Part shown: positions 28 to 62,817 of the stretch, piece after piece
How positions within the stretch are numbered: position 1 is the first letter of the stretch
Layout: every line of letters starts with the position of its first letter
Assembly: GCA_015956445.1 (NCBI GenBank)
Contig: WIUZ02000002.1
Location: forward strand, 682,001 to 746,000
Source: Thelephora terrestris
Lineage: Eukaryota; Basidiomycota; Agaricomycetes; Thelephorales; Thelephoraceae
Direction: 5' to 3'
DNA: 64,000 nt
Translations under genes and position numbers: made by a program
The notes under the pieces: generated by a model
What the model saw: only the letters and a program-made list of their open reading frames with translations
The model's database searches: none
Told to the model about the DNA's origin: nothing

Positions 28-1680
28 ATGCTCAATCGCCTTTTCTCCAGGAAGAAGACTGTCGTACGAAGATCTCCCAAAGTACTAGAAACTGCGCCAG
101 CGGTCGACCCCCCCATCTGTCCTGTAAGTTTGTTGCGATACTAGTTGTTTCACGTGGCTGATTCTATCCTGCAGAACTGTAACATCAGGCCTGTAGCAGC
201 TAAACCTACCGCAGGAGAGTTCTTCGATTTCTGTTCAAAGGGGTGCGCAACGAACGTGAAGAAGGGTAATCTTAATTCTCTGTGTGAGGTATACAACAAA
301 TCTTGCTCAGCGTGTCCTGTGATCGTCATCTAATTTGGTTCTCGTAGTACTGCAAGCAGAGACCAAAGTTCAAGGACGGAACTAGAGTACACCCGTATTG
401 TGGTCGAAGATGCGCGAGGTCTGCAGCGGCTGACTCAGCCAACCTTCCGCCGAATCCTCCAAACCTCGCAGACTCTCTTTCAGTCCTGTCCCAGACGGTT
501 GCCTCAAGTGATTGATAATATTGATTCCCATCGCGATCCAGGGTTGCTGATATTCTGTTGTTGCCAGGTTTGTTTTGCCAGGATCCTGATTGTGTACTCC
601 CTGCATTTATGGATACGAACGGGACCCAGAGCAATTACTGCGTCCTTCACAAAAAGCAGGTTTCTTTCCTCCCAACCTCCGTTCAAATGAATGACCAGTC
701 CGTGAGTAGGTTTAGGGAACAAGGTTGCATCTCTTGTCGTGCTGCTCCAAGTACCGACAAGTCCGTCTTGTGCCAACCTTGCCATGATGATGCGCTCAGT
801 AGGGCGCCAGCACTCGTTCGAGTACCTGAGGACCACAAGAATTACAAGGGCGGTACGTCGACAGCGTTCTGTTGGATTATGATAGGAGCTTATCGGAATT
901 CAGTTCAAAAACAATTTACGCAAACTTGGAGGCATAAAACTACATGTCCTGAAGTCAAGGCAGTTTACAAGATCGTCGTCTCGGAGGCGAGCATGACACA
1001 ATACCAACAGTACCTGTACGAGTCGTTCCCCGTTCTATCGAACCTCACTGAACCTTTTGTCGCAGTGACAGTGTGGAAGTTGCGGGAAATTATGTGGCCA
1101 TGGGCAAGTCACGCGGCAACGAAAACCGTCGATGGCATGGAACGAAACGGAAATGTAGACTCGGAGACTCAGGGAACGAGACGTTCTGCGCCGACGCGGA
1201 GTGCGCGCTGTGTAACATCATTAGAACCTCCTTCGATCTCAAGTTTTTCAAAGCGGCCACCGGTTGGGGAAGGTTCGGGCGTGGGATCTACACTTCCTCG
1301 ACTTCTTCAAAGTTTGTCTCCGCTCGACCGAATGGGTTGAGGAACGCGCGTCTGACATGGGAGTTTTGACTTTCAGGTCCAACGACTATTCGAAGAATCT
1401 GGGTGTTAGTTCTGACTGGAAGGCGCTGCTGCTGAATAAGGTTGTCGTCGGGAACGGCAAGAAGCTTACCCAGGATGACACGACACTTACAGAACCACCT
1501 CCGGGATATAATTCAGTAAGTGTTCCAGTTCTAAGTCCATTTTTCCCAGTGAGTGCGCTAATCAGGAGCTAGGTTCTCGCAGAAGTCGTCCCCGGCGGTG
1601 CTCTAAACTATGATGAGCTCGTCGTTTACAACAACGAGGCGGTCCGACCGTCGTATCTCGTGATGTATAAGAGCCCTTAA
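28..1680 (+). CDS. Zinc-finger/PARP-type ADP-ribosyltransferase, array copy 1
   Basis: Nine exons: 28-123, 175-288, 348-507, 568-655, 707-852, 904-1015, 1066-1311, 1377-1515, 1573-1680. They sum to 1209 nt, about 402 aa, with no internal stop. Exons 1-2 form a Cx2C...YCSxxC-like module (CPNC then FCSKGC), exons 2-3 a second (CEYC then YCGRRC), exon 4 a third (CQDPDC then YC..H) and exon 5 a CISC...CQPC knuckle. Exons 6-9 form a PARP-like catalytic fold: RRWHGT gives His, GRGIYTS gives Tyr, a SKSNDYSKN segment matches the PARP SKSANY region, and NYDELVVYNN gives Glu, so the H-Y-E triad is complete. By family knowledge this should transfer ADP-ribose from NAD+. The target and the role of the Cys modules are unknown. 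The ATG at 28 is the first in frame. The fourth intron starts GC (656), not GT. Confidence 0.8.
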
Positions 1681-2688
1681 GCCCTCTGTCATTATCTATG
1701 TACTTTACTTTACTTTTTCGGACTTCGTTGTAGGCACATATTAGGATTTCCTTCGCATTGTAACTCAGTTGGTTCCCTGGCGGCGGCCAATGATTAATGA
1801 GGCGTGACGAGCAAGCGTGAGAACGATCAAGCCATATACCGTTCCACGAATGTAAGCGGCTCAACTTGTTCCGGTTTTTACAGGTTGCCACCAATTACAT
1901 GCTCGTGTGGTTTCGACTCGGGCGCTCGTTCACGAAATCTTATGCCAGGGTTTGAGCCACCATACGGGTGTAACCTAGATGCAAACTCACAACCTCGTTT
2001 ACGGGCAGAGACGTATCACATGAAATCCACTGTAAAGCCTTTGGATCTTAGGTCAACATCAAGATTCGGAGTGGAGCTGATTCCTGAGTCTTCACGAGCA
2101 TGGCGGTAGTCTCCTCAAGCAGACCACGTAATACCACGGTTATCTCGCAGCTCGGAGCCGACTGACGGTCTACTCAGGGGCCTTTTTGTACAAGAATCCG
2201 AGCGTGACTCTTGCCGCAAGCTTATTCAACCGGCCTTCTCCCAAGATGGGCGTGGTCCGCATGGTGAATGTATTGAACTGGCAGGTGTCGGGTAGGCTTT
2301 GGATGTGCAGCAAGCGATCCGGCAATTTCCTGTCACTCTTGCACGAAATTCCACCGTGGCAACCCCACCTGCCACGCTCGAAGGAAAATATATTGTCCAG
2401 ATCCATCCAACCACACCACTGATTCAAGGGTCAGTTCCTTTTGGACGCGCCTTTCCCTCGCGCTAAACGACCTGATCTTTCATTTAGCAAAATCTCATGT
2501 GCAGATGCGTCAACTCCCATTTCAGGATTGCAACGGGGCCTAGGTATTCTCGCTCGTAACCCTCGTGCACCTGTGTCCCCTCTACTCTCTCCGATCTGGT
2601 CGCCACGGTTTCCGACCGCCAAAGACGAACCCTGCCAGTCTCCTGGGCTACGAAATTGAAAGATCTTTTGAAACCCAAATCCAAACTC
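1681..2688. other. Intergenic spacer upstream of PARP copy 2
   Basis: I see no gene here. From about 2170 onward the sequence is related to the spacers before copies 3, 4 and 5: it shares the segment with CCCTCGCG..GATCTTTCATTTAGC and a run near 2600-2640 resembling CGCCACGRTTTCTGACC. The duplicated unit therefore includes the promoter region. Confidence 0.6.
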
Positions 2689-4491
2689 ATGTTCGCTCGG
2701 CGTGCGCGTTTGCCTGTGGTCAGCCCCCCACTCTGTCCTGTGAGCTCCCCGCGATAACGGCCGCTTTGTGTGGCTGATCACCCCCCGCTCTCGCAGAACT
2801 GCGATGACATGCCTATATTGCCCAACCCCGCTACAGGAGGGTACTTTAACTACTGTTCAAGGACGTGCGCAACGCAGGCAAGACAAAACCGAAGCAATCA
2901 ACAGTCGGGCTCTCTATGCGAGGTATACCGTTACTTTTGCTCGACGCATCCCCTAGGCCGTTTTCTGATTTGAGTCTCGTAGCAATGCAAGCTGAGACCA
3001 AAGTTCAGTAACGGAACCCATGCATACCGGTACTGTGGCCGGACGTGCGCAAGGCTCGCAGCAAATAGTACATCCAATCAAACGAACCTCCCGACGATCC
3101 CTCCGGTCAACCCTCCAGCCAACCCTCCTGTCAACCTTCCAGCCAACCCTACTGTCAACCCTCCAGCCAACCCTCCTCCAGCAAATCCTCCTCCAGCAAA
3201 TCCTCCCCCAGCCAACCCCCCTCCAGCCAACCCTCTGGTCAACCCTCCAGTAAACTCTTCCGTGAACCCTTCAGGTCTTGCTCGCCCGTCCCCGCCCCAA
3301 CCAACCTCTTCAGGTGACTGATAGAATGTAATTTTAAACACGACCCAGGGCGGCTCAAATCATCTTTTTTTTTCAGGCCAAACTTGCCGGACTCCTAGGT
3401 GTAAAAGGCCTGTATTCGTCCATCCGGATGGGACCCCGAGCGATTACTGCATGATGACTCACAAAAAGCAGGTCTTTCTTTCCCCAATATCCGTTCACAT
3501 AATGACAAGCCAATGAGTAGGTGGGGTGAGCACGGTTGTATCTCTTGCCGTGCTGCTCCGAGGAGCAACGCATCTGTCCTATGTCAATCTTGTCACGGCA
3601 ATGAGCTGAAGAAAGCACCGGCGATCGTCCAAGTGCCTGAAGATCACAACAATTACAAGAGCGGTATGTCGACAGTGCTCCACTGGCTGATGGTGAAGAT
3701 TTATCAGGCGATAGTCGAATCACAATTCAAACAATCATGGAGGCATAAGACTGCGTGTCCAGAAGTCAAGGCAATTTACAAGGTCATTTCCACGGAGGCG
3801 AGCCTGAAACAATACGACCAATACCTGTACGAGTGACTCCTCACCGTATCCGACCTCACTTTGATTTGCTGAACATTTGCCCGTAGTGACGATGTGGAGA
3901 CTAGGGGAAATTTTGCAACCGATGGCAAGTCACGCGGCAACGAACACCGACGATGGCATGGAACGACAAGGAAATGTAAACTCGGAGACACTGGAAACAA
4001 TACTTTCTGCGCCGACGCTGGGTGCCCGTTGTGTTGCATCATCAAGTCATCGTTCGACCTCAAGTTTTTCAAGGCGGCGACCGGTTGGGGAAGGTTCGGG
4101 CAAGGGATCTACACCTCTTCGACTTCGTCAAAGTTCGCTTCTACCCGATCGAATCCGTTACTGTTGAATATTCGTCCGACACTGAGGTTCTTACTTCCAG
4201 GTCCAACGACTATTCGAAGAACATGGGCATCAATTCCGATTGGAAGGCGCTGCTGCTGAACAAGGTTGTCGTTGGAAAGGGCAAGAAACTGACCCAAAAC
4301 GATACATCGCTGACTGCGCCGCCTCAAGGATACGACTCTGTGAGAGTTTTTGGGCTGGTATTCTGGTGGAAGCACTAATCAGAAATTAGGTTCTCGCGGA
4401 AGTGGGTGGAGTTCTGAACTACGATGAACTCGTTGTCTACAACAATGACGCCGTCCGCCCGTCGTATCTCATAATGTACAAAAGCCCCTGA
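2689..4491 (+). CDS. Zinc-finger/PARP-type ADP-ribosyltransferase, array copy 2
   Basis: Exons 2689-2739, 2797-2922, 2983-3313, 3377-3467, 3518-3663, 3715-3826, 3887-4132, 4201-4339, 4390-4491. They sum to 1344 nt (about 447 aa) with all phases consistent. It differs from copy 1 by a long linker in exon 3 made of Asn-Pro-Pro-Ala/Val repeats between the second and third Cys modules. The triad is present: RRWHGT, GQGIYTS (Gln replaces Arg of the GRGIYTS motif) and NYDELVVYNN. The ATG used in copy 3 is lost here, so translation probably starts at 2689 (MFARRAR). Intron 4 begins GCAGGT. The gene lies head-to-tail with copies 1 and 3. Confidence 0.8.
3090..3270 (+). repeat. Coding 12-bp repeat: Asn-Pro-Pro linker of copy 2
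   Basis: Imperfect AACCCTCCAGCC-type units lie inside exon 3 and encode NPPA/NPPV. The reverse strand is open across it as a Gly-rich ORF, which is an antisense shadow. Confidence 0.75.
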
Positions 4492-4966
4492 CCGTTTTGC
4501 CACTATATGTATGGCTCCCTGAATTTTGTCATGAGCACCTATTTGTATCTGTTTCACCAGCTCTTTCAACCAGCGGTACGAGCCAGTGGTATATGAAGGG
4601 GCCCTCTGGCTCGGAATCTCATTGGATCATTTTGACCGAACTCCACAGTATACTTACGTGACTGTCTCCGGAAAATGGGCGCCTTGGTCCAGCGCAGGAG
4701 CGCGATAATCTGTTCGGCGGCCGCCACACTACTGGTTCGAGGCTGTCTCCTCTACTAGATACGACTCTCCCTCGCGCTAGAGAATCTAATCCTTCGTCTG
4801 GCAAAATCTCATGCAGGCTTGTCAGCTCCCATCCTAGAATCATCGCGGGCACTCTGATATATTCACTCAAACCTCGTGCGATAATTGTATTCCCACTATT
4901 GCTCCCCCCCGGATTGGCCGCCACGATTTCTAACCACCAAAGACCAACCTGCCGGCTTACTGGACG
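4492..4966. other. Intergenic spacer upstream of PARP copy 3
   Basis: No gene seen. It is homologous to the other array spacers (CCCTCGCGCTAG, GCAAAATCTCATGCAGG, CGCCACGATTTCTAACC) and presumably holds the duplicated promoter. Confidence 0.55.
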
Positions 4967-6639
4967 ATGTCAATGAAGGGACTTTTGAAGGACTTCTTCA
5001 CTCCGCTTCCACGCTCGCTTGCACCCCCGCCTGCAGTCAGCCCCCCAACCTGCCCTGTAAGCACCTCGCCTTAACGGTCATTTGATGTGGCTGATCACCC
5101 TACACTCTCGCAGAACTGCAATGACATGCCTGTATTGCCCAACCCCGCTACAGGAGGGCAATTTGATTACTGTTCAAGGACGTGTGCAACACAGGCAAAG
5201 AACATTAGTTCGAATCAAAGGCAGGGACAGTCAGGCACCCTGTGCGAGGTATCCCGTCGCTCTTGCCCAACGCATCCCTGTGGTCATTCTCTGACTCGAG
5301 TCTGTAGCAATGCAAGCGAAGACAAAAGTTCAAGGCCGGAACCAACGTATACCGGTACTGTGGTAGAACATGCGCAAGGCTCGCAGCAAACAGTCGCCTC
5401 AGTCAAGCGATGACCTCCCCGGTGAACCCTCTGAGCCCCACTTATCCAGCCTCACCCTGGCTGGCGTCTCCAGGTGATCGCTGGAGGTTGATCCAAACCA
5501 CGACCCAAGACGGCTCTGATTCTTTTTTATTTTTTCAGGTCGAACTTGTCGGATTCATTGGTGTACAGGGTCTGTATTCGTCCATCACGATGGAACTCCG
5601 GGCGATTACTGCACAATGACTCACAAAAAGTGAGCCCTTATTTCCTAATTTCCTTTCACGTAGTGATGAACCGGCGAGTAGGTGGGGCGAACACGGTTGT
5701 ATCTCTTGTCGTGCTGCTCCGGGGAGCGGCGCATCCATCCTATGTCAATCTTGTTACGACAATGAGCTGCGTAGGGCACCTGCGATAGTCCAAGTACCCG
5801 TAGACCACAACAGGTACAAGAGCGGTAAGCCGCCAGTGTTACTCGCAACCGATTAGTATTTATGAGAAGACAGTCGAATCACAATTCAAAAAATCGTGGA
5901 GGCAAGGCACTCCGTGTCCCGAAGTCCAGGCCGTTTACAAAGTCGTTGTCACGGAAGAGAGCCAGAAACGATACAAGCTATACCTGTGCGAGTGATTCCT
6001 CTCCGTAGCTGACCTTGCCTCCTTGAACCTCTTATCGTAGTGACGGGGTGGAAGCTAGGAGAAACTTTGCAGCAAAGTCCAAGTCACGCGGCAACGAAAA
6101 CCGACGATGGCACGGAACGGTGAGGAAATGTAAGCTCGGAGACCCCGGAAACACGACGTTCTGTGCCGACGCGGGGTGTTTCTTGTGTTCCATCCTCAAG
6201 ACATCGTTCAATATGGCGGTGTCCACTCAGGGGTGGTTCGGTCGTGGGATCTACACTTCTTCGACTTCATCAAAGTTCGTCCACGCTTGATCGAATGGGT
6301 AGCTGAACGTGCGTCTGACGCTGAAGACTTGACTTTCAGCTCCAACGGCTATTCAAGGAATCAGGGCGTCAGTTCCGATTTGAAGGCGCTGTTGCTGAAC
6401 AAGGTCGTCGTCGGAAACGGCAAGAAGCTGACTCAAATTGACACAACGATTGTCGGACCGCCTGCTGGATACGATTCTGTGAGTGCCGTTGGGCAAGTGT
6501 ATCAGCGGAGGCACCGTTAACCAGGAGCTAGGTTCTCGCGGAAGCGGCCCCTGGTGGATCTTTGATTCATGACGAACTCATCGTCTACAGCAACGACGCC
6601 GCACGACCGTCCTATCTTGTGATGTACAAAAGCCTCTGA
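4967..6639 (+). CDS. Zinc-finger/PARP-type ADP-ribosyltransferase, array copy 3
   Basis: Exons 4967-5056, 5114-5248, 5308-5473, 5539-5629, 5679-5824, 5874-5985, 6041-6274, 6340-6478, 6532-6639. They sum to 1221 nt (about 406 aa). The start MSMKGLLKDF is the best preserved N-terminus in the array. The linker is short (MTSPVNPLSP) and lacks the NPP repeat. Intron 4 starts with a normal GTGAGC, unlike copies 1, 2, 4 and 5. The final exon reads SLIHDELIVYSNDAARPSYL, so the conserved NY before DE has become IH, but the catalytic Glu stays. The triad His (RRWHGT) and Tyr (GRGIYTS) are intact. Confidence 0.8.
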
Positions 6640-7348
6640 TCGCTGTACCATTGTACCACGGCTCCCTGAACTTTGTCATATGCACCGATGTGTATTTGTT
6701 TCAATCAGTTCTTCTCCTTCCCAACGTGAACAAGCAAGCGCGGGACTCATCGCAGAGCAACAGAAAGAATCGACACTTTCCCGGTTTGAGGCCGAAACAT
6801 CGTGAAGGGCTCGAAAGAAGTGTGATGATCTGTAAGGGCCGCGTGATCGCGGGACAACTCAAGCACTCATTCAATCACTCATGCGCATGGGCTGAGGCCT
6901 GATATATGTATATGAGCGTCTACCGGACGGGCGGAAAAAGCCTGTAGCAGTTACTTATCTGGCAGTGACCGACGGTACGCATCCCGAAACCAGCCTTCCC
7001 GTCCACCCTGCCAGCTCATAATCTGCACCCCGTTTTCAGGCCGACCGTTTACCATGCTCTGTACTGTGCAGATCCCCCCAACCCTACCATTGATTCGAGG
7101 GTGGGTTCCGTTGGAAGCGCATGTCCCTCGCGCCGAAGAAACTGATCCTTTGATCATTTGGCAAAACCTCATGCAGGTGCCATGTCAGCTCCCATTACAA
7201 CGGACGGTCTGGTATTCCCGTTCATAACCCTCGCGCATCTGTGGTTCCTCTCCTCCCCCAGAACCGGCCGCCATAGTTTCTGACCGTCGAAGCTTGAAGA
7301 CTAACATCAACGAAATCGAAGGACCTTTTGAAACCCAGATCCAAACCG
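6640..7348. other. Intergenic spacer upstream of PARP copy 4
   Basis: No supported gene. The right half (from about 6940) is a diverged copy of the 2230-2690 spacer. A small open frame on the plus strand at 6651-6902 has no recognisable motif. Confidence 0.5.
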
Positions 7349-9150
7349 ATGTTCGCTCTGTTTTCGCCTTCGCTTGCGATTACTAGCCCCCCGACATGCC
7401 CGGCAAGCCTCTTGGGATGCTGGTCGCTTCCCGTGGCTGATGATTCTTGTAGAACTGCAACCACATACCTGTGTTATCAAACCCCGCTACAGGAGGGTAC
7501 TTTGACTACTGTTCAAGGACGTGCGCAACTCAGGCAAAGAACAGTGCACAAAATCAAAGGAATGGACAGCCGGGCTCTCTATGCGAGGTATGTCGTTACT
7601 TTTGCTCGGCGTGTCATTAAATCTTCTCTGATTTAAGTCTCATAGCAATGCAAGCGGAGGCCAAAGTTCAGTAACGGAATCAATGCATACCGGTATTGTG
7701 GCCGGACGTGCGCAAAGCTCGCAGCAAATAGTCCTTTCAATCAAGCGAACCCTCCGACCAACCCTCCAACCAACCCTCCTCCAACCAGCCCTCCTTCAAC
7801 CAACCCTCCTCCAACCAACCCTCCTCCAACCAACCCTCCTCCAACCAACCCTCCTCCAACCAACCCTCCTCCAACCAACCCTCCTCCAGCCAATCCTCCT
7901 CCGGCCAACCCTCCCCCAGCTAACCCTCCTCCGGCCAATCCTTTAGTAAACGCTCCCGTGAATCCCCCAAGCCTCGCTCGCCCAGCCCCGCCCCAGCCGG
8001 CCGCTTCAGGTGATCGATAGTCTTTAATTTCACCCACAACAAAAGACGGCTCAGACATTTTCTTTAGGTAAAACTTGCCGCAGCCGTTGGTGTACAAGAC
8101 CTGTATTCATCCATAACGATGGAACTCCGGGCGATTACTGCACGATGACTCACAAGAAGCAAGTCTTTATTTCTTCAATTCCGTTCATATTGTGACGAGT
8201 CCACGAATAGGTGGGGTGAATACGGCTGTATCTCTTGTCGCGCTGGTTCGAGGAGCAGCGCATCGGTTCTGTGTCAAACTTGTTACGACAACGAGTTGAA
8301 GAAAGCACCGGCGATCGTCCAAGTGCCTGAGGATCACAACAATTACAAGAGCAGTATGTTCACCGTCCTCTACTGGCTGATGGCGGGCTCTCACAGGAAG
8401 ACAGTCGAATCACAATTCAAACAAACGTGGAAGGGTACTGCGTGTCCTGAAGTCAAGGCAATCTACAAGGTTATAGTGGCGGAGGCGAGCATGAAACAGT
8501 ACAAAAAATACCTGTAGGAGTAATTTCTTATCATAACTGACCTCGACTTGATTTACTGACATTCTTCGTCGCAGCGATGGGGTGGAAGCCAAGGGAAATT
8601 TCGTAGCCATGGGCAAGTCACGCGGCAACGAAAACCGGCGATGGCATGGAACGACAAGGAAATGCCAACTCGGAGACATCGGAAACAAGACGTTTTGCGC
8701 TGATGCAGGGTGCGCGTTGTGTTGCATCATCAAGACGTCGTTCAATATGGCAAAGTCCAACACGGGGCTCTTCGGGCGTGGGATCTACACTTCTGCGACT
8801 TCATCCAAGTTCGTCTCCACTCGACCGAATGGGTTGCTGTCGAACATACATCTGACACACAGGTTTTTAATGCCAGGTCCGATGGCTATTCGAAGAATGT
8901 GGGCATCACTTCCGTTTGGAAGGCGATGCTCCTGAACACTGTTGCGGTTGGAAACGGCAAGAAAGTGACCCTGGTTGACACGTCACTGACCCAACCGCCT
9001 CCGGGATACGATTCTGTGAGTTTTTTTGGGCTGATTTTTCATGCGCTAATCAAGAGGTAGATTCTTGCGGAGAGGAGCAACGACGAACTCATTGTCTACA
9101 ACGATGATGCCGTCCGTCCGTCGTATCTTGTGATGTACAAAAGCCCCTAG
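7349..9150 (+). CDS. Zinc-finger/PARP-type ADP-ribosyltransferase, array copy 4
   Basis: Exons 7349-7402, 7453-7587, 7646-8009, 8068-8158, 8211-8353, 8405-8513, 8575-8808, 8877-9015, 9061-9150. They sum to 1359 nt (about 452 aa). This copy has the longest linker, a near-perfect NPPT/NPPA repeat. Introns 1 and 4 both start with GC (GCAAGC and GCAAGT). The last exon is shortened before the catalytic Glu: AERSNDELIVYN against AEVVPGGALNYDELVVYN in copy 1. The loop leading into the Glu strand has therefore lost about six residues, while H, Y and E are all kept. Activity seems possible but is less certain than for copies 1-3. Confidence 0.77.
7747..7945 (+). repeat. Coding 12-bp minisatellite: NPPT/NPPA linker of copy 4
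   Basis: At least eight near-identical AACCCTCCTCCA units sit in frame inside exon 3. The same place in copies 1, 3 and 5 holds only one or two NP/NPP motifs, so the array expanded after duplication. Confidence 0.85.
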
Positions 9151-9867
9151 ATTTTTTACGATTATCTACGTACCATGGCTCCCTGCTCTTGACCGTAGGC
9201 ATATATTTGCATCTGTTTCGTCAACTTTTTTCAACAGTTACAAAGTGGTTGCGGATTGTACCGGAGGCACGTGAGCTGCGAACATGCAGAGGTTGTTGCC
9301 ACTCCCCTAATATATACCACTGATGACTCCGTCTTCTCAACAGCCTCAACCTGACGAGCATATACCACGGGAATAGCACCTCAGCGAATATAACTCACCA
9401 GGCGCAGCACGATTTGCATTCGCGCGACGCCGAACGTGCGATCGAAGTACAGCTTCTACCAAACAGGCGGAAAAGTCCGTAGCAGTCCGGTTTGGCCGAC
9501 CAGAGGCGTGCACCCAGAAACCAGCCTTCCCAGTTCCCACCCACCCTACCAACCGTCCGTGCACCCGCCCAAGGCCGGGACGCGTACTATGCTAGAGGGA
9601 AAGCGTGCTGCGTGCAGATCCGTCCAATCACTCTACTGGCGGGTTCCATCCGGGCACGCCTTTGCATCGTGTCAAAGATGCTGATTTGGCGGATTCTGAT
9701 GTGCAGGTGAGTCAACGCCATTACGACAGGCGCTTTCCCACTGACACCGCCTCCCCCCAGAACTGGCCGCCACGATTTCTGGCCACCCAAGCTTGAGAGC
9801 CAACCCTCCCTATTTTCCGGACGACGGACTTCGATCGAAGGGTCTCTCGAAACCCAAATCCAACCTC
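9151..9867. other. Intergenic spacer upstream of PARP copy 5
   Basis: No gene seen. It contains the shared array spacer near 9760-9800 (CGCCACGATTTCTGGCC) and a segment at 9470-9560 related to 6930-7020. Confidence 0.5.
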
Positions 9868-11482
9868 ATGTTCGTTCCACCTCGGCTTGCGGTGAGCCCT
9901 CCGAGCTGTCCCGTAAGCTTCTTGCGATAGCGACCGCTTTTCCGTAGCTGATCACCCTGTACGCATACAGAGCTGCAAGAACACGCCTGTGTTGCCCAAC
10001 CCCGCTACAGGAGGGTACTTTGACTACTGTTCAAGGTCGTGCGCAACACAGGCGAGGAACATCACTACAAAGCAATGGAACGGACAGTTAGGCACTTCAT
10101 GCGAGGTATGTCGTTGCTCTTGCTCAACGTATCCTCGCGAGTGTTCGCTAATTCGAGCCTCATAGCAATGCAAACGGAGACCGAAATTTAAGGATGGAAC
10201 CAACGTATACCAGTACTGTGGTCGGACATGCGCAAGGCTCGCAGCAAATGCCAGTCGTTCCAATCAAACGATGAACTCCCCAGTAAACCCCTCGAGCCTC
10301 GCTCATCCAGTCCCGCCCCAGCCGGCCTCCTCAGGTGACCGCTGGGATTCGATTCCAACCGCGACCTACGACGGCTCACATTGTTTCTTTCCCCCAGGTC
10401 GGACTTGCCGGACCCCTGGGTGCACAAGAGCTGCATTCGTCCATCACGATGGGACTCCGAGCGATTACTGCGCGATGAATCACAAAAAGCAAGTCTTTGT
10501 TTATTCGATTTCCGTTCGCGTATTGACGGGCTCACGAGTAGGTGGAGTGAACACGGTTGTATCTCTTGTCGTGCGGCTCCGAGGAGCACCGCATCTGTCC
10601 TATGTCAAACCTGTTACGACAGCGAGCTGAGTAAAGCACCGGCTCTCGTCCAAGTACCTGAAGATCATCAGAATTTCAAGAGCGGTATGTCGAGAGCACT
10701 ACTAGCCAATAATGGAGATTTACCAGAAGACAGTCGAATCACAATTCCAAAAAACGTGGAAGGGTACTGCGTGTCCCGAAGTAAAGGCGATTTACAAGAT
10801 CATAGTCGCGGAGGCGAGCCTGAAACAGTACAAGCAATACCTGTACGGGTTGTTCCCCGTCTTAGCAGACCACGCATGCCGTTACTGAACCTTTTGTCAC
10901 AGTGATGGTGTGGAAGCTAGGGGAAATTTCGTAGCCATGGGCAAGTCACGCGGCAACGAAAACCGACGATGGCATGGGACAACAAGGTCGTGTACCCTAG
11001 GAGACGCTGGAAACAAGACCTTGTGCACCGGCCCGGGGTGTCCGTTGTGTTGCATCATTAGGACGTCGTTTAATCTGGCGGTGGCCAGCCAGGGAAACTT
11101 CGGGCGTGGGATCTACACTTCTGCGACTTCATCCAAGTCTGTCCACACTCGACCGAATGAGTCGTTATCGAACATACATCTGACACAGAGGTCTTCACTT
11201 CCAGGTCCAACGGCTATTCACGCAATGCGGGCATCATTTCCGATTGCAAGGCGATGCTCCTGAACACGGTCGTTGTCGGATACGGCAAGAAAGTGACCCA
11301 AACTGACATGTCGCTGACCCAACCGCCTGCGGGATATGATTCTGTGAGAAAATTTCAGCTAGTTTCCAGGGGAAGTACTAATCAGGAGTTAGATTCTTGG
11401 GGAAGTGGGCGTCGATGAACTCATTGTCTACAACAATGACGCCGTCCGCCCGTCGTATCTTGTAATGTACAAAAGCCCCTAA
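9868..11482 (+). CDS. Zinc-finger/PARP-type ADP-ribosyltransferase, array copy 5
   Basis: Exons 9868-9912, 9971-10105, 10166-10334, 10398-10488, 10542-10684, 10734-10842, 10903-11136, 11205-11343, 11393-11482. They sum to 1155 nt (about 384 aa), the shortest of the array. The linker is short and lacks the repeat. Intron 4 begins GCAAGT, a strong GC-donor consensus. The last exon reads ILGEVGVDELIVYNN, missing the PGG-x-LNY turn much as copy 4 does, so copies 4 and 5 share this trait. RRWHGT and GRGIYTS are intact. This is the last head-to-tail unit; beyond it the array homology stops. Confidence 0.78.
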
Positions 11483-12251
11483 CCGTTGTACCGTTATCTG
11501 TGTGCCATGGCTCCCTGTACTTTATCATCTGATTTGTTTCGTCAGCCTGTCCGACGACAACGAGAAAGTATTAGAATTCAACGCGGGGCGGTGCAGAACT
11601 TCAAATTCAGGTGAAAGTAGCTGTGGTACATTGGAGTGCCACCCTCTGGGCTTCAACGTTAGCATTGCCAACTCTGCCACGATCATCTCCCGATTGCCTC
11701 CTGCACACACCTCAGGCCCTATGTTGTGAAGTTGGCTATAGATTTTGGATAACGAGAGTCCGTCCTATGTTCTCTCCTGCCACTTTTGAGGTGCACACCG
11801 CTATACACGCGATTATGACTGAATTACGCTCAATCTCGGGGTTTTCCGACATTAGCTACTCAACCGACCCTGACACATCGTTGTCCTTTACAGGGCAGCT
11901 TAACCCACGTGCGGAATAGGTTTGACTTACATACGTTTAATTTGGTGATGTTGGTATCTCACGAGGGGCCCGCCGGTCTAGCCGTTGTATCGCGGGCTGC
12001 GAGGCCGTGATCTGCAATCAGCCAGGTTTGCCTTGCAGATCTCTTCGCCGCCCCGCAAATACCTAATCAGGGAAATGCAATTGCCAAGTGCTCGTGGCCT
12101 CGGAGAGTAACTAGTGACGCGGTATGGTTCCATCTCAGCATCAAAGAGCGGTGTCTTGGCCATTTCTAGGAAGACTGGTCGTACTTAAGGTTCCCCATTC
12201 GCTGATGCGGTCCTTCGCCCCCACTCATCTCTCTAGTTTTGAACACCCAGG
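11483..12251. other. Gene-poor stretch between PARP copy 5 and the DUF6533 gene
   Basis: Short open frames occur on both strands (for example plus 11611-11919) but show no motif, no splice logic and ordinary composition. I support no gene. Confidence 0.4.
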
Positions 12252-13900
12252 ATGGATAACGCAGGACTACGGGCTCTCATTGCAGTCGGTGAACATACGT
12301 ACGTGCGGTCCACGTCTGCAATTGTTCCACGATTTTGATGCTGACGACCTCGGTACAAAGCCTAATCACCAAGGTATGGACCCCAATCTGAACCAGGATT
12401 TCGCCGCGTGACGTGGACGATTTCAGTGCATCACGCTCGCAGGGACGGTGGTGGTCATCTGGGATCACTTGCTAACTCTTCCTGATGAGGTGAAATACGT
12501 GTGGAGGAAAGAACGATCATGGGGTGAGTGCTGTTGGATCCCTTCTCGAGGGGAAATTTTGACGACCGCCTAGTCTTCTGGCTCTTCGTCACGGTTAGCC
12601 TCCACCTTAGTTGGCCTCGATCGGTTGTTGATCCCCTTGCAGAGCAGGTACTCCATTCTGCTCTACAAGACTTGGAACACGATATGTGCGTCGCTTATTA
12701 ATTGCAAAACCGGTCAGACCGTGTTCGCTGATGCATTTGCAGCGACTTTCTGGCCAGGCTATACCCAAGAAGTAAGTATTTTTCCCTTGTAGGTTCGGAA
12801 CCTATTTTACACAGCTTTGCGCGCAGGTGTGAGTTTTGTGGTTAGCGCCAATGACTGGGAGTGTTCAAATGTCAAACTTTGACCCAGGTGTAATCGCACT
12901 GTAAAGTTGGAAGGGTATTATTTCGTCTTCATAACGCTCGGTCAGATATTCCTAACGATGAGGTGAGCTATTCGCACTCATCTGAGTGCTCCCCCATTTT
13001 ACTTAGTGGGGTTTACTATAGAGTGTATGCTTTGACGGAAGCGAGCAGATACGTCCTCGTCGTTTTCGGTATCCTCGTCACTTCTTCGTTCGCGACGGGC
13101 GTGTGGCTTGTCAGCGTCCCTTCGGCTACAGGTAGTCCATGCACTCCACATTCGTTGTTCGCATCTGATCTTCCCCAGCCGTGGAATTGCCCAATATCCA
13201 TCTCGATTCGTTTCGAACGTGTATCTTCTCTGCCTCTACGACCGCAGAATGGGCGTACAGGGCACAAGTCGCGGTTGCTGGTACTCATTCATTTTCCTGT
13301 TTCGCGGCAAGAGCCTCACACCTTCACAGACCTAGTTACCGTCGTTTGCATCGTTGTCTTCGTCCTCAAGCTAAAAGCCAACCACGGCCAGTCGCGCATG
13401 ACCCGGTTGATGCGAACGATTCTCCAAGATGGCGTCCTATATTTCTTCGTCATGGCCGCGTTTCACCTCACGATGGTGTTTTGCACTTTCTTCACTGGGG
13501 TAACCTACATCTCTTCCTCTCGTCGAAAGATGCGCCTGACATCGTGGCGTCTTAGTCTTACGCGCAGGACTTCCCGCCGATTACGATCATCGTGCATGTA
13601 CTTTTCCGTTTCAGTTGAGAGTTTGGTGGCTGACTAGGACAACCCTACAGCTTGATACCTGTTATGATCTCGCGCTTGGTTGTATCCCTTCGGAAGGCCG
13701 CAGACGGTTCGCTTGTCATGGCATGGAACGGAGACCACTTCACCGCGGTCGAGGGCCACGTGAACGAGATGATGGATTTCGCGAGTCCACCGCTGCCCTC
13801 GATGTTCTCTTCGCCAGTCACCTTCAAGTTAACGTCCTTCGATCAGCGTTCCGAACGATCATCTCGTTCCTATCCCACGAGTTCTCGTTCGGCCGCGTGA
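12252..13900 (+). CDS. DUF6533-type multi-pass membrane protein
   Basis: Start MDNAGLRALIAVGEHT at 12252. The exon at about 12427-12522 reads WDHLLTLPDEVKYVW, the hallmark of the basidiomycete DUF6533 N-terminus. Small exons follow (VFWLFVT; SRYSILLYKTWNTI), then CNRTVKLEGYYFVF, LTMRVYAL and two hydrophobic helices (YVLVVFGILVTSSFATGVW; LVTVVCIVVFVLKL). Then come a DGVLYFFVM helix and a tail beginning LIPVMISRLVVSLR, ending at 13900. This is the usual order of the family: several transmembrane segments, then a cytoplasmic tail. The function of the family is unknown. About eight introns are needed, and some junctions (12300 and 12840-12890) are uncertain, so a local lesion cannot be excluded. 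The neighbours suggest no pathway. Confidence 0.65.
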
Positions 13901-14129
13901 GGACCAGCAGCCCTGTCCTTCCCATACGTATAGTACTGAAAGCCTCGATTTTTATGTGTGTTATTTATGTGTTATACCTGTTGCTTTAGCCTAAAGAAGC
14001 ATCTCATTTTTCAGCATTGACGACCGGAACATCAACTTGTCGGGCTCAGTCTTACCTCCACAATGCACATTCTGCAAGCTTGATCCGCTACCACCACCAG
14101 GTCGGATTCAGATTTTCCCACGCTGAAAC

Positions 14130-14621: not shown

Positions 14622-16539
14622 TCAAGGACTTTTGTACATCACAAGGTATGACGGTCGGACCGCCTCGTTGTTGTAGACGACGAGTTCATCGTAGTTTAGA
14701 AACCCACCGGGGACGACTTCCGCGAGAACCTGACTCCCTATTAGCGCACTCACAGGAAGACTGGACAAAGACCACTTACGGAATCATATCCCGGAGGTGG
14801 TTGGGTCAGTGATGTGTTATTTTTGGTTAGTTTCTTGCCCTTTCCAACGATAACTTTGTTCAGCAGCAGCGCCTTCCATTCGGAGTTAATACCTATATTC
14901 TTCGAATAGTCGTTGGACCTGGAAGTCGAAAACCTCGTCATCAGATGTACGTTCAACAACTACGCACTCGGTCGAGGGAAAAACAAACTTTGATGAAGTG
15001 GAAGAAGTGTAAATCCCGTGCCCGAACCTCCCCCAGCCCGTCGCGGCCTTGAAAAACTTGACATCGAACGAGGTCTTGATGATACGACACAGCGAGCACG
15101 CCGAATCGGCGCAGAAGGTTTTGCACCCCTGGTCGCCGAGATTACATTTCCTTTTGGTTCCATGCCATCGACGGTTTTCGTTCCCGCGCGACTTTCCCTT
15201 AGCCACAAAATTTCCCCTGCCTTCCACACTATCTCTGCGACCGGAAAAAGAACAGTGAATAACGAGAGATCAGATACGACGGAGTGTCGCTCGCACTGGT
15301 ATTGTTGGTATTGTCTCAGGCTTGCCTCAGCGACGATGATTTTGTAAATCGCCTGGACTTCAGGACACGTCGTTTTATGCCTCCATGATTGTTTAAATTG
15401 TTTTTCAACTGTCGTCTGATCAGTCCCCATTGTCACTCAGCCAAAAGGACATCATCGACATACCACTCTTGTAGTTTTCGTGATCTTCGGGTACTTCAAC
15501 GATGACCGGCGTTCTGCTCAGCGCATCCTTGTGGCAAGGTCGACAAAGGACAGATACTTTGCTCATCGGAGCAGCGCGACAAGAGATACACCCTCGTTTT
15601 CCCCATCTACTCACGAACTTGTCATCCCGTGGACGGAGATTGGAAGGAAAAAGACTTACCCTTCGTGAGCAACCGTGCAGTAATCACCCAAAGTCCCATT
15701 TAGATAGACGAACACAGGATATGGACATCCGGGAGTCCGACACGTAGGGCCTGGCAAGAATATGATTTCAGCCGCCTTGTGTCGCGATGGAATTTCGGTC
15801 TCGTTGATTACCTGGAGGGATCAGCTGTGGGTCCAGATGAGCGCTCCCAGTGAGGAGAGGAGAGTCCGGTGGAGGGTTCGGTTGACTGGAATGGGTCTTT
15901 GCGCGGTTTGTGCATGTCAGACCGCAGTACGCGTGCACTTTAGTTCCATCCTTGAACTTGGGCCTCTTATTGCAATACTACGGGAGTCAAATCAGATAAA
16001 GACGTCGAAGTTGTGTCCAGTAAGAGTTATCGATTACCTCGCACAGAGAGTGCGCCTGTTCCTCCCATTCACCCGGGCTTCTTGCCTGCTCCGCGCACTC
16101 GTTTGAACAGAAGCCGAAGTACCCCCCTGTAGCTGTATTGAATCTAAAGGCTACAGGCTTGGTCTTGCATATCTGTGAAATTAGGTCACCAAAACGACCA
16201 CCACTAAATGAAACTCACAGGACAAGTTGAGGGGCTGAAAAAAGGTCGACGCTGAGGGCGGGGCGTAGGCCGACGCTGAAGACGAGGCCGTGGCAAAGGC
16301 GGAGGCGGAGTTAAAAGCACAGGAAGAGGCGAAGGTGAAGGAGGTGATAGAGGCGGAGGGGTAGGCGGAGAAGAAGTTGGAGGCAAAGGTTGTGGCAAAG
16401 GTGGGGGCTGGGGCAAAGGCCGAAGCAAGGGCGAGCGTGGAACTAGAAAATTAGAAGGCGGCGGCGTCGGAGGTAAAGGAGAAGGCGCCGGGGGAGGCAC
16501 GGGTTTTGATTTGCGTTTGAAAAAGCCCTTCAAGTTCAT
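14622..16539 (-). CDS. Zinc-finger/PARP-type ADP-ribosyltransferase, copy 6 (inverted)
   Basis: Starts at 16539 with MNLKGFFKRKSKPV and ends with a TGA at 14622-14624. Unlike copies 1-5 its first exon carries the Pro-rich stretch (PPPAP..PPTPPPLSPP) ahead of the first Cys module (STCP/ICK), so the flexible linker has moved to the N-terminus. It keeps YCNKRPKFKDGTKV..YCGLTC, CRTPGCPYPV..YC and CISCRAAP..CRPC. The catalytic part keeps RRWHGT, GHGIYTS and NYDELVVYNN. Intron 4 has a normal GTAAGT donor. It is transcribed opposite to the main array and lies against a kinase fragment, the same neighbour type as copy 7, so it probably came with a duplicated kinase-PARP block. Confidence 0.78.
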
Positions 16540-17032: not shown

Positions 17033-20000
17033 ATGGATCCTCCCAAATCCGTCCCCCTTTGGGTCACTTGTATGTGTGCAAAGTGCACACAATATTTACC
17101 TGGAGGAAAGGACGTCTCGGAAAGGACGTGGTTTCGGCATAACCCTGGTGGAAAAAAATCCAAATATGCTCCCCTCACGGCTGAACAGACCCTAGCATTT
17201 GATAGGATAGCCGCAATCCAGGACTCTCTCCCTCGTCCTAGAAGCAATGCACGGAAGCGACGTCGTCCGGAAGTCGAAGAAGTCGAAGTTACCTCGCATC
17301 CAGCTAAGCGAGCCGCGGGGTCGGGCTCGGTAAGCACGCCCACACTGCATATATGCGCCTCAAAAGTACGATACTCATAAAACAATTCATGTAGGGTACT
17401 CAGAATCTTATAGAAGTTGTTCCTGAGCGTGAAACGTCCCCAGAAACAGGCCCAGTTTCTCCTCTACCTGAGCCCGAGCCCGAGAGTCTCCCTCCCCCTC
17501 CGATCTCAAGCCGCCTTATCGAAGATACTGGCCAAGATCCTCCTCCACCCTCTCCTCCACTCGAAGAATCCCATGACAGAGTCCTGGATCCTCCTCCTTC
17601 TGGCTTGGATACAGGTCCCAACCCCCCACAGGATGGCGAATCCGGCGAATCTCCTCCCAGTGATGACGAAGATGACTCTCACATCACGCTGGATAGCATG
17701 AAAGAGAACTTCGCATTCCTCCAGATGGTACGGGAGGCAACTCTAGAGGCTCAGTTCACTCCGGCTGAGCTCTATTCCCTCCGGAATCCTCAAGAGTCTA
17801 AGTTCTCCCCTTCTGACGACAGAGATCTCCTGCTATCTATCAAGTTCTTTATGTCAACCCTGGACCACCTCACATCACAAAAGGCGTACACCGAGGCCCG
17901 TGAAGACATACTAGAGCGTTATCCTGATTCTGAGATGCTCTCTTACGACCGGGTTAAGCGACTAGTATCTAATCTATCTGGGGTCCTTACTTGGAAACAT
18001 GACATGTGTGTCGACTCCTGCGCCGCATTCACGGGTCCATTCGCTCCTCTGGAAAACTGTCCTCGATGTGGTAAGCCGCGTTACGACCAAGAAAAACTCA
18101 AGATGTCCGGCGGAAAAGATAAGGTACCCCTCAAATCCTGCACAACGATACCCCTCGGCCCACAGCTCCAGGCTTGCTGGAAAAATCCTGAGATGGCCGA
18201 AAAAATGACCTATCGGCGGAAAAAAACTCAGGATCTACTGGAGAAGCTTGCCCGTGGTGAAGAATTCGACTACGACGATATATTCTGTGGCAAGGATTAT
18301 CTCAAGGCAGCTCAGGAAGGTATTATCGACGAGCACGATATGGTCGTCACGCTTTCTCTGGACGGCACACAATTATTTCGCAACAAAAAATCAGACTGCT
18401 GGATCTACATCTGGATCATCCTAGACCTCGCTCCCGACCACCGTTATAAAATACGGCATATTCTTCCAGGCGGTATCATCCCCGGCCCGAAAAACCCCAA
18501 GCACCTCGACTCTTTCCTCTTCCCGGGTCTGGCACGCGTCTCTGCCCTTCAGAAGGAAGGGTTGCGCATCTGGGACGGCCTCAATAATCTCACTTTTGAC
18601 TCATTTATCTATGTTCTTCTTGTTCTCATGGACGCCGTTGCTGCTGCTGACGTGAGCGGCGCTGTTGGCCACCACGGAAAAAAGGGCTGCCGGGTGTTTT
18701 GTGGGCTCGCCGGACGCAACAAACCCGGCGGTCCTCATTATTACCCCGCCTTACTACGTCCTCTGGATTGCGATAACCCGGCCTCAGATCACGCAGATAT
18801 CGATATCAACAAATTACCCGACGCGAACCCATCAAATTCACTGGGGGCAAGGGGTCAAATACCCAGTGGGTACATGCTGAATACATTGTGATCACAGTCA
18901 ACAAGTGATCACAATGTGCCCAGTGGGGAAAATTTGAATACATTCAAAATGTACCTGGCCATGTGAACCCAATGTGCCCAGTGGGCACATTTTGATTGCG
19001 ATCACAATGTACACATCAATGTGATCTCAATGTGCCTGCTGTGCACATTTTAATTTCTTTCACAATGTCCCCATCAATGTGTTCTCAATGTACCCAGCTC
19101 ATTACATAATAGTTTCTTTCACAATGTTGTCCACAATGTGTCCAGCATGTGGCTGAGCCACTCATTCAAACTTCTTTCACAAAGTATCCAGTGATGTGTC
19201 CATAATGTCCCCAGGGGGTTCTTTTTGAAGTAATCACAATGTAATCACAATATTGTTCAATTTCATCATGAACTTTCAAAGAAATCACTATGTGTATGGC
19301 TGTACACATTCTAGACACATCACTGGATACTTTGTGAAAGAAGTTTGAATGAGTGGCTCAGCCACATGCTGGACACATTGTGGACAACATTGTGAAAGAA
19401 ACTATTATGTAATGAGCTGGGTACATTGAGAACACATTGATGGGGACATTGTAAAAGAAATTAAAATGTGCACAGCAGGCACATTGAGATCACATTGATG
19501 TGTACATTGTGATCGCAATCAAAATGTGCCCACTGGGCACATTGGGTTCACATGGCCAGGTATATTTTGAATGTATTCAAATTTTCCCCACTGGGCACAT
19601 TGTGATCACTTGTTGACTGTGATCACAATGTATTCAGCATGTACCCACTGGGTATTTGACCCCTTGCCCCCAGTGATTACAGAAGAGATCTCCGGAAAGT
19701 GATGGCTTCCTCGACAGAAGCCGATTATAGATCTAACCGACTTGAAACCGGGATCAGGAAGAAAAGTATCTTCGGTGGCCTCCCTCGAATTCTACCTTTG
19801 CTGACCTGCTTCCCTGGGGATCTTATGCACCAGCCTGTGATAAATCTGACTGGCCTAATGCTTGAGTTATGGTGCGAGAAGGGGAACTGCCGGAAAGGCA
19901 ATGATTCTTCTGATGTCTGGGACTGGGCGGTTCTGAAGGGGGACGTCTGGAAGGCTCACGGCAAGGTCGTCGCACTGTGTTCCACATACTTCCCTCGCTC

Positions 20001-60926: not shown

Positions 60927-62817
60927 TCACTTTGGGGTATCATACATCACAAGATACGATGGCCGAATAGCGTCGTTGTTGTACACGACGAGTTCGTCGT
61001 AGTTCAAACGAGCCCCGACCTCTGCTATGACCTGGTTCCCCCATCAGTTCGCAATCGGACATTCATCGGACACCAGCGCTCACAGAATCATAACCAGCAG
61101 GGGGTGCAGTCAACGCAGTATTGTCGACCTTCAGCTTGTATCCCTTCCCGACGACCACTCTATTCAGCAACATCGCCTTCCACTGGGAAATACAGCTGTT
61201 CTGAGAATAAGCGTCCGACCTGACGAATTCAAAGCCGTTAGCAAGCAGCTTTGATACACTTGATGGGCGCGAGAACGAACTTTGACGAAGTCGCAGAAGT
61301 GTAAATCCCCGATCCAAACCTCCCAAAGCTCGTCTTCTTGGCAAAAAACGAGAGGTCGAAGGAGGTCCTCATGATACAACAGAGGGAGCACGAAGGGTTT
61401 GAGCAGAACCTCGTCACCCCTTTATCTCCGATGTTACACACCCTCGTCGTTCCGTGCCACCTACGGTTCTCGTTTCCGCGAGATTTTCCCTTGGAGGTAA
61501 ACTTGCCTTTGGCTTCAATCAGATTGCTGTAACAGCGTGCGTCAATCATAGCAAGGGAATCGGCGATGATAAACAAGACGGACAGGTAGCGCTCGTATTT
61601 CGTGACGTTTGTCCTCGTACTTACGATCTTGTAGATCGCGCGGACTTGAGGACATTTCTTGCTGTGCAACCATTTCTGTTTAAACTGTGACTCAACTTCA
61701 GGGAGTTGTCAGTCACTTTATTTGGTACTGGTACCGGCAGATATTCTACAACCCACTCACCGCTCTTGTACCTTTCGTGGTCTCGAGGAACTTCGACGAT
61801 CGTCGGCGCAGTATATAGGAGTCCGTCATAACAAGGTCGACAGAAGACGATCGAACCGTCTGTTTGGGCTCCACGACAGGATATACAACCGCTTTCCCCC
61901 AACCTACGCATTATTCAATACGCGTTCGTGGGATAGAATAGCGGGGCGAGACACGCACTGTTTGTGTGTCCTGCCACAGTATTTGCTGGCGAATCCGTTC
62001 GAACCGACGTACACAGGGGCTTCGCATCCGGCAATCAGGCAGGTCTGGCCAGCAGAAGACCCCCAATATACGGTAGATCTGTTGTTTCTCGTGGTAGTAG
62101 AACTTGTGTGAAAGTCGATCGGCGTGAGCACACTTGGCATGCGCACACTTTTACGGCGGTTAACGGATCCAATAACGTTCCTGGAGTTGGTGGGTGGAGT
62201 GATGCCTAAAGCTCCCGTGGTGTCTGCGAGAGTGGTGCCTCTAGTCGGACTTGCGAAAGCGAACGGGTTTGCGGTATTTACATAGCTGGTAGGAGCGGGC
62301 GCGTTTACATTTGCTGGACCCTTGCCTTTCGCAAGTCTTGCACACGTCCTACCGCAATACGGGTGCACGGTGGTACCGTCAGTGTACCTCGGTCTTTGCA
62401 TGCAATGCTTTTGTGGTTAAAATAGTCAGAAATTTCCCAACTACACTCAAAACGCGCGCGCTCACGTTGCACACATCGAGGACGGAGCTCGCGTTCGCGT
62501 TCGCATTCACGCCCGTGCTCGCTTTCTGATGGCCAGCGAGATTGGAATCAAGTTGCAAGACACGAAGGATGCTCCCGATAGCGCATGAATCGGAACAATA
62601 GTTGCTGTACTGTCCTTTGAGCGGATCCCATCTTTGCGGCTGCGAATTACAATTCTACGCGAATGTGGATGAGAAGAGTCAATGAACCGTGGTTGCAACC
62701 CTAAGGTAAGGATGACCATGCACGTACGTCGCACAGTCCCTGGTGCAGATTAGGGAAGATAGGCGAAACTGAGGTCTGGTTTTGACTTGAGGATGGATCG
62801 CCCAGCGTTGAGGACAT
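60927..62817 (-). CDS. Zinc-finger/PARP-type ADP-ribosyltransferase, copy 7 (most diverged)
   Basis: Starts MSSTLGDPSSSQNQTS at 62817 and ends DTPK with stop at 60927-60929. Cys modules: LCDNCNSQPQ..YCSDSC, HCMQRPRYTDGTTV..YCGRTC, CLIAGCEAPVYV..YCGRTH and CISCRGAQ..CRPC. The linker is Gly/Thr/Asn-rich (SPTRGTTLADTTGALG) without NPP repeats. The catalytic part has NENRRWHGTTRVCN, GSGIYTSATSSK and LNYDELVVYNNDAIRPSYL, so the triad is complete. Introns lie at the same nine-exon positions, with GT donors throughout; intron 4 starts GTGCGT. Its divergence and intact state make it the best guess for the ancestral-type member. It lies upstream of the kinases on the same strand. Confidence 0.8.

What the first reader, a model, noticed from the sequence alone, without database searches (positions are those of the whole stretch)
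28..11482. Five intact head-to-tail zinc-module/PARP genes, with two more inverted paralogues
Each of five genes has nine exons whose lengths sum to a multiple of three, a complete H-Y-E ADP-ribosyltransferase triad and four Cys-rich modules of the form Cx2C..YCxxxC. Copies 6 and 7 keep the same plan. A lineage-specific expansion of intact PARP-like enzymes with uncharacterised Cys modules suggests a role under diversifying pressure, such as nucleic-acid or antiviral/competitor response. That role is inference.
Basis: partly seen in the sequence, partly recalled or inferred. Interest (0 to 1): 0.72.

Follow-up and report, generated by a model that had tools for sequence, protein, structure and literature searches.

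The report
Fungal zinc-module PARP gene family expansion
A fungal chromosome carries a cluster of intact, duplicated genes for PARP-type enzymes that join cysteine-rich (probably zinc-binding) modules to an ADP-ribose-transferring domain, a gene family whose job in fungi is unknown.

Summary
Five head-to-tail genes (28-11482, +) and two inverted ones (14622-16539 and 60927-62817, -) each have an open nine-exon model; six of seven share one intron-phase pattern. All seven match Pfam PARP above threshold (E 3.4e-10 to 1.6e-14) and keep the H-Y-E triad and all 16 module Cys/His. Only modules 1-2 follow Cx2C..YCxxxC; module 3 is C-C-C-H, module 4 C2-C2. A fifth Cys4 cluster follows the catalytic His (28 of 29 modelled copies).

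Catalytic matches fall at 30 loci, apart from one PARP1/2-like locus. Whole-gene omega is 0.33-0.48 among w2-w5: purifying selection, so diversifying selection is not supported. N-terminal and catalytic halves of w2-w5 give conflicting signals (p 0.0015). Three copies outside the window share an exon with a kinase end; some lost catalytic His or Glu.

Best reading: target-guided ADP-ribosyltransferases evolving by birth-and-death and domain shuffling. An immune or conflict role remains a guess; other fungal genomes, expression and activity could not be examined.

The parts
28..1680 (+). w1: zinc-module/PARP gene, 9 exons, 401 aa
   Evidence: Model; PF00644 E 1.6e-14; locus on contig C58 about 93-94% identical in DNA
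2689..4491 (+). w2: zinc-module/PARP gene, 9 exons, 446 aa, with NPPxx-repeat linker
   Evidence: Model; PF00644 E 3.4e-14 (scanned with an earlier, wrong linker)
4967..6639 (+). w3: zinc-module/PARP gene, 9 exons, 405 aa; SKS Lys replaced by Asn
   Evidence: Model; PF00644 E 3.4e-10
7349..9150 (+). w4: zinc-module/PARP gene, 9 exons, 452 aa, longest NPPPT/NPPPA linker; GC donors at introns 1 and 4
   Evidence: Model; PF00644 E 1.9e-11
9868..11482 (+). w5: zinc-module/PARP gene, 9 exons, 384 aa
   Evidence: Model; PF00644 E 2.5e-11
14622..16539 (-). w6: inverted copy, 9 exons, 486 aa, long Pro-rich N-terminus; sister of a copy at C12:661-663 kb
   Evidence: Model; PF00644 E 1.1e-13 (scanned with a shorter N-terminus); tree
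60927..62817 (-). w7: inverted copy, 9 exons, 427 aa; first exons and linker less certain
   Evidence: Model; PF00644 E 6.6e-14
118..246 (+). w1 module 1 (C31, C34, C52, C56), split by intron 1
   Evidence: Ligands kept in all 17 rows
283..413 (+). w1 module 2 (C69, C72, C88, C92), split by intron 2; the kinase junction of three relatives lies here
576..650 (+). w1 module 3 (C127, C132, C148, H151), within exon 4
726..782 (+). w1 module 4 (C159, C162, C174, C177), within exon 5
1136..1213 (+). w1 catalytic His (H262) and the Cys4 insert C268, C279, C284, C287 directly after it
   Evidence: Cys4 in 28 of 29 modelled copies; not seen in the tankyrase sequence printed
1289..1291 (+). w1 catalytic Tyr (Y313, GIYT)
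   Evidence: alignment to tankyrase GIYF
1615..1617 (+). w1 catalytic Glu (E381, YDELVVY)
   Evidence: alignment to tankyrase AEYVIY and PARP4 DEFVVY
7748..7942 (+). coding 15-bp minisatellite in exon 3 of w4 (a shorter one in w2 near 3130-3264)

Best explanation
These are functional ADP-ribosyltransferases of the PARP (ARTD) superfamily, probably intracellular (their N-termini look basic; no signal-peptide test was run). Four small Cys-rich modules, most likely each holding a zinc ion, sit at the N-terminus and choose the target (nucleic acid or protein). The C-terminal ART domain binds NAD+, uses His-Tyr-Glu, and transfers ADP-ribose to that target; an additional Cys4 insert beside the catalytic His probably braces the NAD site. 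The family grows by local tandem duplication, inversion and occasional dispersal, and exchanges its N-terminal and catalytic halves between copies. Some relatives outside the window have a TKL-like protein kinase in place of module 1; others lost the His or Glu and may act as non-catalytic partners. Shown: gene structures, homology, triad, ligand conservation, purifying selection, copy number, half-swapping signal, single-exon kinase junctions. Inferred: zinc, target choice, activity, and that the turnover reflects stress or conflict signalling.
For: PF00644 over the curated cut-off in 7 of 7 window copies and matched by 11 of 11 rows of A1; profile-to-PDB best hits PARP4 8.5e-13 and tankyrase-1 3.5e-12, Tyr and Glu aligned strongly, His weakly; 7 of 7 open models, 6 of 7 with one phase pattern; module ligands 97% conserved against 49% for other N-terminal positions in 17 selected rows; catalytic-domain omega 0.14-0.47 in the ten pairs; 30 loci; tree with w2-w5 as one group and w6 with u662; N-half/C-half conflict 19:7 against 10:24 informative sites, Fisher p 0.0015; kinase E 5.5e-40 for joined pieces and one exon spanning kinase end and module 2 in 3 copies.
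Against: No expression, activity, zinc or target data. The Cys modules match no Pfam family above threshold and the two small fold predictions were poor (pLDDT 44 and 65), so zinc binding rests on the motif alone. Some copies lost catalytic residues or exons, which is what drift after duplication would also give; c58a/c58b show omega about 1 in the catalytic part. A genome search found matches to the macrodomain at one locus only and none to ADP_ribosyl_GH; the search for PARG was uninformative.
Confidence: 0.62

Rival explanations
1. Conflict/immunity family: the modules recognise foreign nucleic acid or proteins (virus, mobile element, competitor, non-self hypha) and the ART domain modifies host or invader targets, like the fast-evolving antiviral PARPs of vertebrates.
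For: Large, dispersed, partly decayed family with half-swapping and changing repeat linkers; kinase fusions; dead-site paralogues. Analogy: Daugherty et al. 2014 PMC4038475, seen only as title and start of abstract.
Against: Whole-gene omega below 1 in 15 of 15 pairs; modules 1-3 at 0.16-0.78 in 10 of 10 pairs. A partial Pfam scan of the window (20 open stretches) gave no immune family above cut-off; the bacterial Imm5 model matched 32570-33145 (-) below its cut-off (19.8 against 25 bits). No induction data.
Confidence: 0.2
2. Ordinary regulatory family (development, DNA or stress response) in which tandem copies give dosage or stage-specific expression.
For: Purifying selection on catalytic domain and modules; conserved intron plan. 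Citarelli et al. report that PARPs are mostly retained in fungi with multicellular hyphae or elaborate development (PMC2964712, passage).
Against: Copy number, kinase fusions and lost catalytic residues are more than simple dosage needs.
Confidence: 0.3
3. Mostly neutral birth-and-death: a gene family kept alive by duplication, with little selected function per copy.
For: Broken or truncated copies such as u665, c58b, c60b, c60c, c2a and c2b; transposase and repeated elements in the window; omega about 1 between c58a and c58b in the catalytic part.
Against: 7 of 7 window copies intact; at dS about 0.4-0.6 in the catalytic part, neutral copies would be expected to hold stops and omega near 1, but omega there is 0.32-0.47 among w2-w5.
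Confidence: 0.12
4. Not enzymes but ADP-ribose or NAD+ sensing scaffolds that keep the ART fold.
For: His to Tyr in c58a/c58b; Glu to Arg in u668 and d771.
Against: 25 of 29 modelled copies keep His and 26 of 29 keep Glu; 7 of 7 window copies keep the triad.
Confidence: 0.08

Closest known systems
Tankyrase and PARP4 (ARTD) catalytic domains
   Same: Best solved-structure matches by profile; Tyr and Glu align strongly, His weakly with tankyrase
   Different: No ankyrin, SAM, BRCT, VIT or vWA match in the Pfam scans. The Cys4 cluster follows the His; in the tankyrase sequence printed the Cys/His cluster follows GIYF (that it binds zinc is recalled).
Clade 1 fungal PARPs (PARP1/2-like)
   Same: Same catalytic family PF00644
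   Different: No WGR or PARP_reg match; this genome's only PARP_reg and WGR matches (E up to 1) are at contig C56:508-509 kb beside a PARP match
Vertebrate antiviral PARPs, PARP13/ZAP (recalled comparison)
   Same: N-terminal Cys modules plus C-terminal ART domain; some paralogues here have Tyr in place of the catalytic His, as ZAP does (recalled)
   Different: No CCCH finger or WWE match in Pfam; scores below tankyrase and PARP4 (E 4e-7)
zf-FCS (MYM) and YacG zinc modules
   Same: Similar Cx2C..FCSxxC layout; weak matches in the Cys region of w1
   Different: All weak: YacG best E 0.02 in 2 of 11 rows, zf-FCS best E 1.8 in 2 of 11

Membership tests
PARP/ARTD catalytic family (PF00644) | Sequence match above the curated cut-off | tested here: met
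   7 of 7 window copies, 40.2-54.3 bits against cut-off 26.7
PARP/ARTD catalytic family (PF00644) | H-Y-E triad at the positions of solved PARPs | tested here: met
   7 of 7 window copies carry all three; Tyr and Glu aligned strongly to PARP4 and tankyrase-1, His to tankyrase HGS in a stretch of only 4.4 bits
PARP/ARTD catalytic family (PF00644) | NAD+-dependent ADP-ribose transfer | not testable with these tools
   Needs purified protein
Clade 1 (PARP1/2-like) PARPs | WGR and PARP regulatory domain | tested here: not met
   No PF05406 or PF02877 in the scans of w1-w7; genome-wide only at C56
PARP1-type DNA-nick zinc fingers | PF00645 zinc fingers | tested here: not met
   Not among Pfam matches at E up to 10 for 11 rows or up to 1 for w4 and w7; HMMER filters drop most weak matches
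Tankyrases | Ankyrin repeats and SAM domain | tested here: not met
   No such Pfam match
Clade 6 fungal PARPs | E2-like (UBCc) domain and PARP6/8/16-like catalytic domain | tested here: inconclusive
   No UBCc Pfam match; PARP16 not among the 60 PDB rows shown of 80; no tree with named clades was made
zf-FCS / YacG zinc modules | Match above curated cut-off | tested here: not met
   w1: YacG 12 bits against 25.5, zf-FCS 8.1 against 22.4; for the other rows only the best E-values are shown (0.02 and 1.8)
TKL-type protein kinase (three relatives outside the window) | Kinase domain with Lys, HGD.K, DFG in frame with module 2 | tested here: met
   PK_Tyr_Ser-Thr E 5.5e-40 for pieces of u668 joined by eye, 2e-18 for the single-exon piece of u649; d771 not scanned; one exon spans the junction in u649, u668, d771. 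Motifs read by eye; the label TKL is recalled.

The most novel reading that the evidence does not exclude
A fungal conflict-sensing system built from exchangeable parts: zinc modules as recognisers, an ADP-ribosyltransferase as effector, TKL kinases as fused signal inputs and dead-site paralogues as partners, kept in a mixed gene cluster where the parts are reshuffled, a fungal counterpart of vertebrate antiviral PARPs.
Probability: 0.15. Interest if true: 0.82.

Novelty: new variant of a known kind. Interest (0 to 1): 0.5.

Why it matters
The one broad survey whose passages I read says fungi encode only Clade 1 and Clade 6 PARPs (PMC2964712). Here one genome holds 30 or more loci of a different layout, with unclaimed Cys modules, a Cys4 insert at the NAD site, kinase fusions and probable pseudoenzymes. 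If active, this is a large uncharted ADP-ribosylation system in fungi, and the tandem copies give a natural series for testing what the modules recognise.

Tried and rejected
Diversifying selection: rejected at gene level. w6/u662 shows relatively more amino-acid change in the Cys region, linkers included, than in the catalytic domain (p 0.0002), but u646/u659 (p 0.054) and w1/c58a (p 0.24) do not reach significance (counts, tests), so I treat it as looser constraint.

Pseudogene array: rejected for the seven window copies; true for some relatives.

Relatives in prokaryotes and viral contigs: none found by pattern scan plus tblastn; one scan each, with two short patterns each.

Erasers: macrodomain matches at one locus, none for ADP_ribosyl_GH, PARG search uninformative because no control genome rang.

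Literature: ten searches were answered. Among the papers listed (lists were capped) I saw none on this layout in fungi, judging by title and start of abstract; passages were read only in PMC2964712 and PMC11856363. The library is open-licence PMC only.

Model errors corrected on the way: the first aligner read the NPPxx linkers of w2 and w4 partly as introns and split w6's first exon; one junction of w4 was one base off; fixed. The omega values used the earlier models; those use corrected w2, w4 and w7, and w6 still with the split first exon.
Full report
What was checked. The window is C12:682001-746000 of a 40.6 Mb assembly in 60 contigs. It looks like a mushroom-forming basidiomycete: introns mostly of 45-73 bases and a DUF6533 membrane-protein gene next to the array (E 1.2e-12); that DUF6533 is typical of such fungi is recalled. 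The species was not identified.

The genes. I modelled w1 by hand, aligned it to the others with a splice-aware script and fixed the errors. w1 28-1680, w2 2689-4491, w3 4967-6639, w4 7349-9150 and w5 9868-11482 lie head to tail on +; w6 14622-16539 and w7 60927-62817 are on -. All seven have nine exons, a length divisible by three, ATG to stop and no inner stop. The phases 0,0,1,2,1,2,2,0 are shared by w1-w6; w7 differs at intron 3. Scores against w1 are 1066-1254 for w2-w5 and 30-66 for 12 shuffles.

What they encode. Pfam PARP (PF00644) is matched by 7 of 7: w1 1.6e-14, w2 3.4e-14, w3 3.4e-10, w5 2.5e-11, w6 1.1e-13; w4 1.9e-11, w7 6.6e-14. A profile of 11 copies (A1; six from the window, w4 not included) finds PARP4 (8.5e-13) and tankyrase-1 (3.5e-12) first among solved structures. 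Tyr and Glu align in one strong stretch; His aligns with tankyrase only in a second stretch of 4.4 bits. In these scans no other family reaches E 0.01.

The Cys modules. In w1: C31-C34-C52-C56; C69-C72-C88-C92; C127-C132-C148-H151; C159-C162-C174-C177. All 16 positions are kept in 7 of 7 window copies. Over 29 modelled copies, 12 keep all 16 plus H-Y-E, and w7 joins them after correction: 13 of 29. One further catalytic match, c60c, gave no usable model and was dropped. Ligand positions are 97% conserved against 49% for other positions of residues 31-180, in 17 rows chosen for being fairly complete, so that contrast is biased in favour of the modules. Module 2 was found at 18 places in the genome. 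By position 17 fall at loci modelled; the other (C12:681 kb) belongs to a diverged PARP copy that I had not listed.

A fifth cluster. Between the catalytic His and GIYT lie C268, C279, C284 and C287. They are present in 28 of 29 copies, including very diverged ones; the exception lacks this stretch in its model. The tankyrase sequence printed shows no such insert. This is the feature that I would most like to see in a structure.

Copy number and neighbourhood. The catalytic domain is matched at 30 loci: 22 on C12 between 539 and 791 kb, 3 on C58, 2 on C2, 3 on C60 (my grouping of the 83 matches, broken copies included; the tool calls its counts lower bounds). The diverged copy at C12:680-681 kb makes 31. 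The canonical PARP, with PARP_reg and WGR matches, is alone at C56:507-509 kb.

Evolution. In a tree of 27 catalytic domains (of 29; u665 and c18b left out) w2-w5 group together (89/91), w3-w5 at 100/97, w6 pairs with u662, and w1 with the two C58 copies. Nei-Gojobori omega for whole genes is 0.33-0.48 among w2-w5, 0.37 for w1/c58a and 0.38 for w6/u662. Over the ten pairs it is 0.14-0.47 in the catalytic part and 0.16-0.78 in modules 1-3. This is purifying selection. In w2-w5, informative sites before module 4 favour w2+w4 (19, against 7 and 8), and sites from module 4 on favour w4+w5 (24, against 10 and 6); the two main classes differ with Fisher p 0.0015. The split point was chosen by me before counting but after seeing the repeat families, so the p value is optimistic. 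Gene conversion or unequal crossing-over is the simplest cause.

Kinase fusions. Upstream of three copies outside the window (u649, u668, d771) the open stretch that ends at module 2's first half also holds the end of a protein kinase, in one frame. The u668 kinase, joined by eye, scores 5.5e-40. In d771 the donor after this exon reads AT instead of GT, so that copy may be damaged. u668 and d771 have Arg for the catalytic Glu. In the rows listed (a capped list; 146 of 859 candidates scored) every match to the u668 kinase of 70% identity or more lies on C12 between 670 and 771 kb. Kinase sequences 67-84% identical lie in this window at 55501-56370 and 57159-58030 (-). Kinase and PARP genes are thus intermingled, which suggests how they could join.

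A modules-only neighbour. At about C12:677.9-679.5 kb (+) I read a stretch with four Cys motifs in the same order and no PARP catalytic match on that strand. Its exons were read by eye and not modelled.

Interpretation. The anatomy says: recognition modules plus an ART enzyme. Selection says: functional. The family history says: turnover and reshuffling. That combination is common in stress and conflict systems (general knowledge), but it is not proof. I put 0.62 on the enzyme-with-target-modules reading, and about 0.2 on a conflict role.

Known or new. Citarelli et al. (PMC2964712; passages only) state that fungi encode only Clade 1 and 6 PARPs. The genes here fail the Clade 1 domain test. 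Clade 6 could not be excluded by tree. No paper on this layout appeared in the listings of the ten searches answered. Databases of fungal proteins, which I could not search, may well hold unannotated relatives, so I file it as a new variant of a known kind.

Noticed in passing
C12:651240-651884, 670007-670354 (-), 770740-771126 (+) (loci L010, L012, L015): Open stretches that hold a kinase C-terminal end and the start of PARP module 2: kinase-PARP fusions. The d771 donor site is altered.
   Followed up: partly
C12:677.9-679.5 kb (+) (locus L012): Stretch with four Cys motifs in the same order as the PARP genes but no PARP catalytic match on that strand: possible modules-only gene.
   Followed up: partly
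C12:680-681.2 kb (-) (loci L012, L056): A diverged further PARP-like copy, head-to-head with w1.
   Followed up: partly
L052 and L053 (C58:1.096 and 1.181 Mb): Two copies of w1 with catalytic His changed to Tyr; the two loci are 96-99% identical over about 3.5 kb; c58a has an open model, c58b is broken.
   Followed up: partly
window 17395-18888 (+) and 18838-19676: Transposase_21 (tnp2) match (E 2.1e-8) beside 371-base inverted repeats, 99% complementary.
   Followed up: no
window 46967-49291 (+): 775-residue open frame with no Pfam match and two full-length ~99% identical copies elsewhere in the genome, plus partial ones: probably a recent mobile element.
   Followed up: partly
window 51257-51913 (-): Integrase core domain (rva_4) match, E 7.4e-21.
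   Followed up: no
window 55501-56370 and 57159-58030 (-): Kinase sequences 67-84% identical to the kinase fused to PARP copy u668, next to w7 but not fused to it.
   Followed up: partly
window 32570-33145 (-): Open stretch with a sub-threshold match to the bacterial immunity protein model Imm5 (19.8 against 25 bits).
   Followed up: no
window about 12250-13950 (+): DUF6533-type membrane-protein gene between w5 and w6.
   Followed up: no
window 7748-7942 and about 3130-3264 (+): Coding 15-bp minisatellite (NPPPT/NPPPA) of different length in w4 and w2: a likely length polymorphism between isolates.
   Followed up: partly
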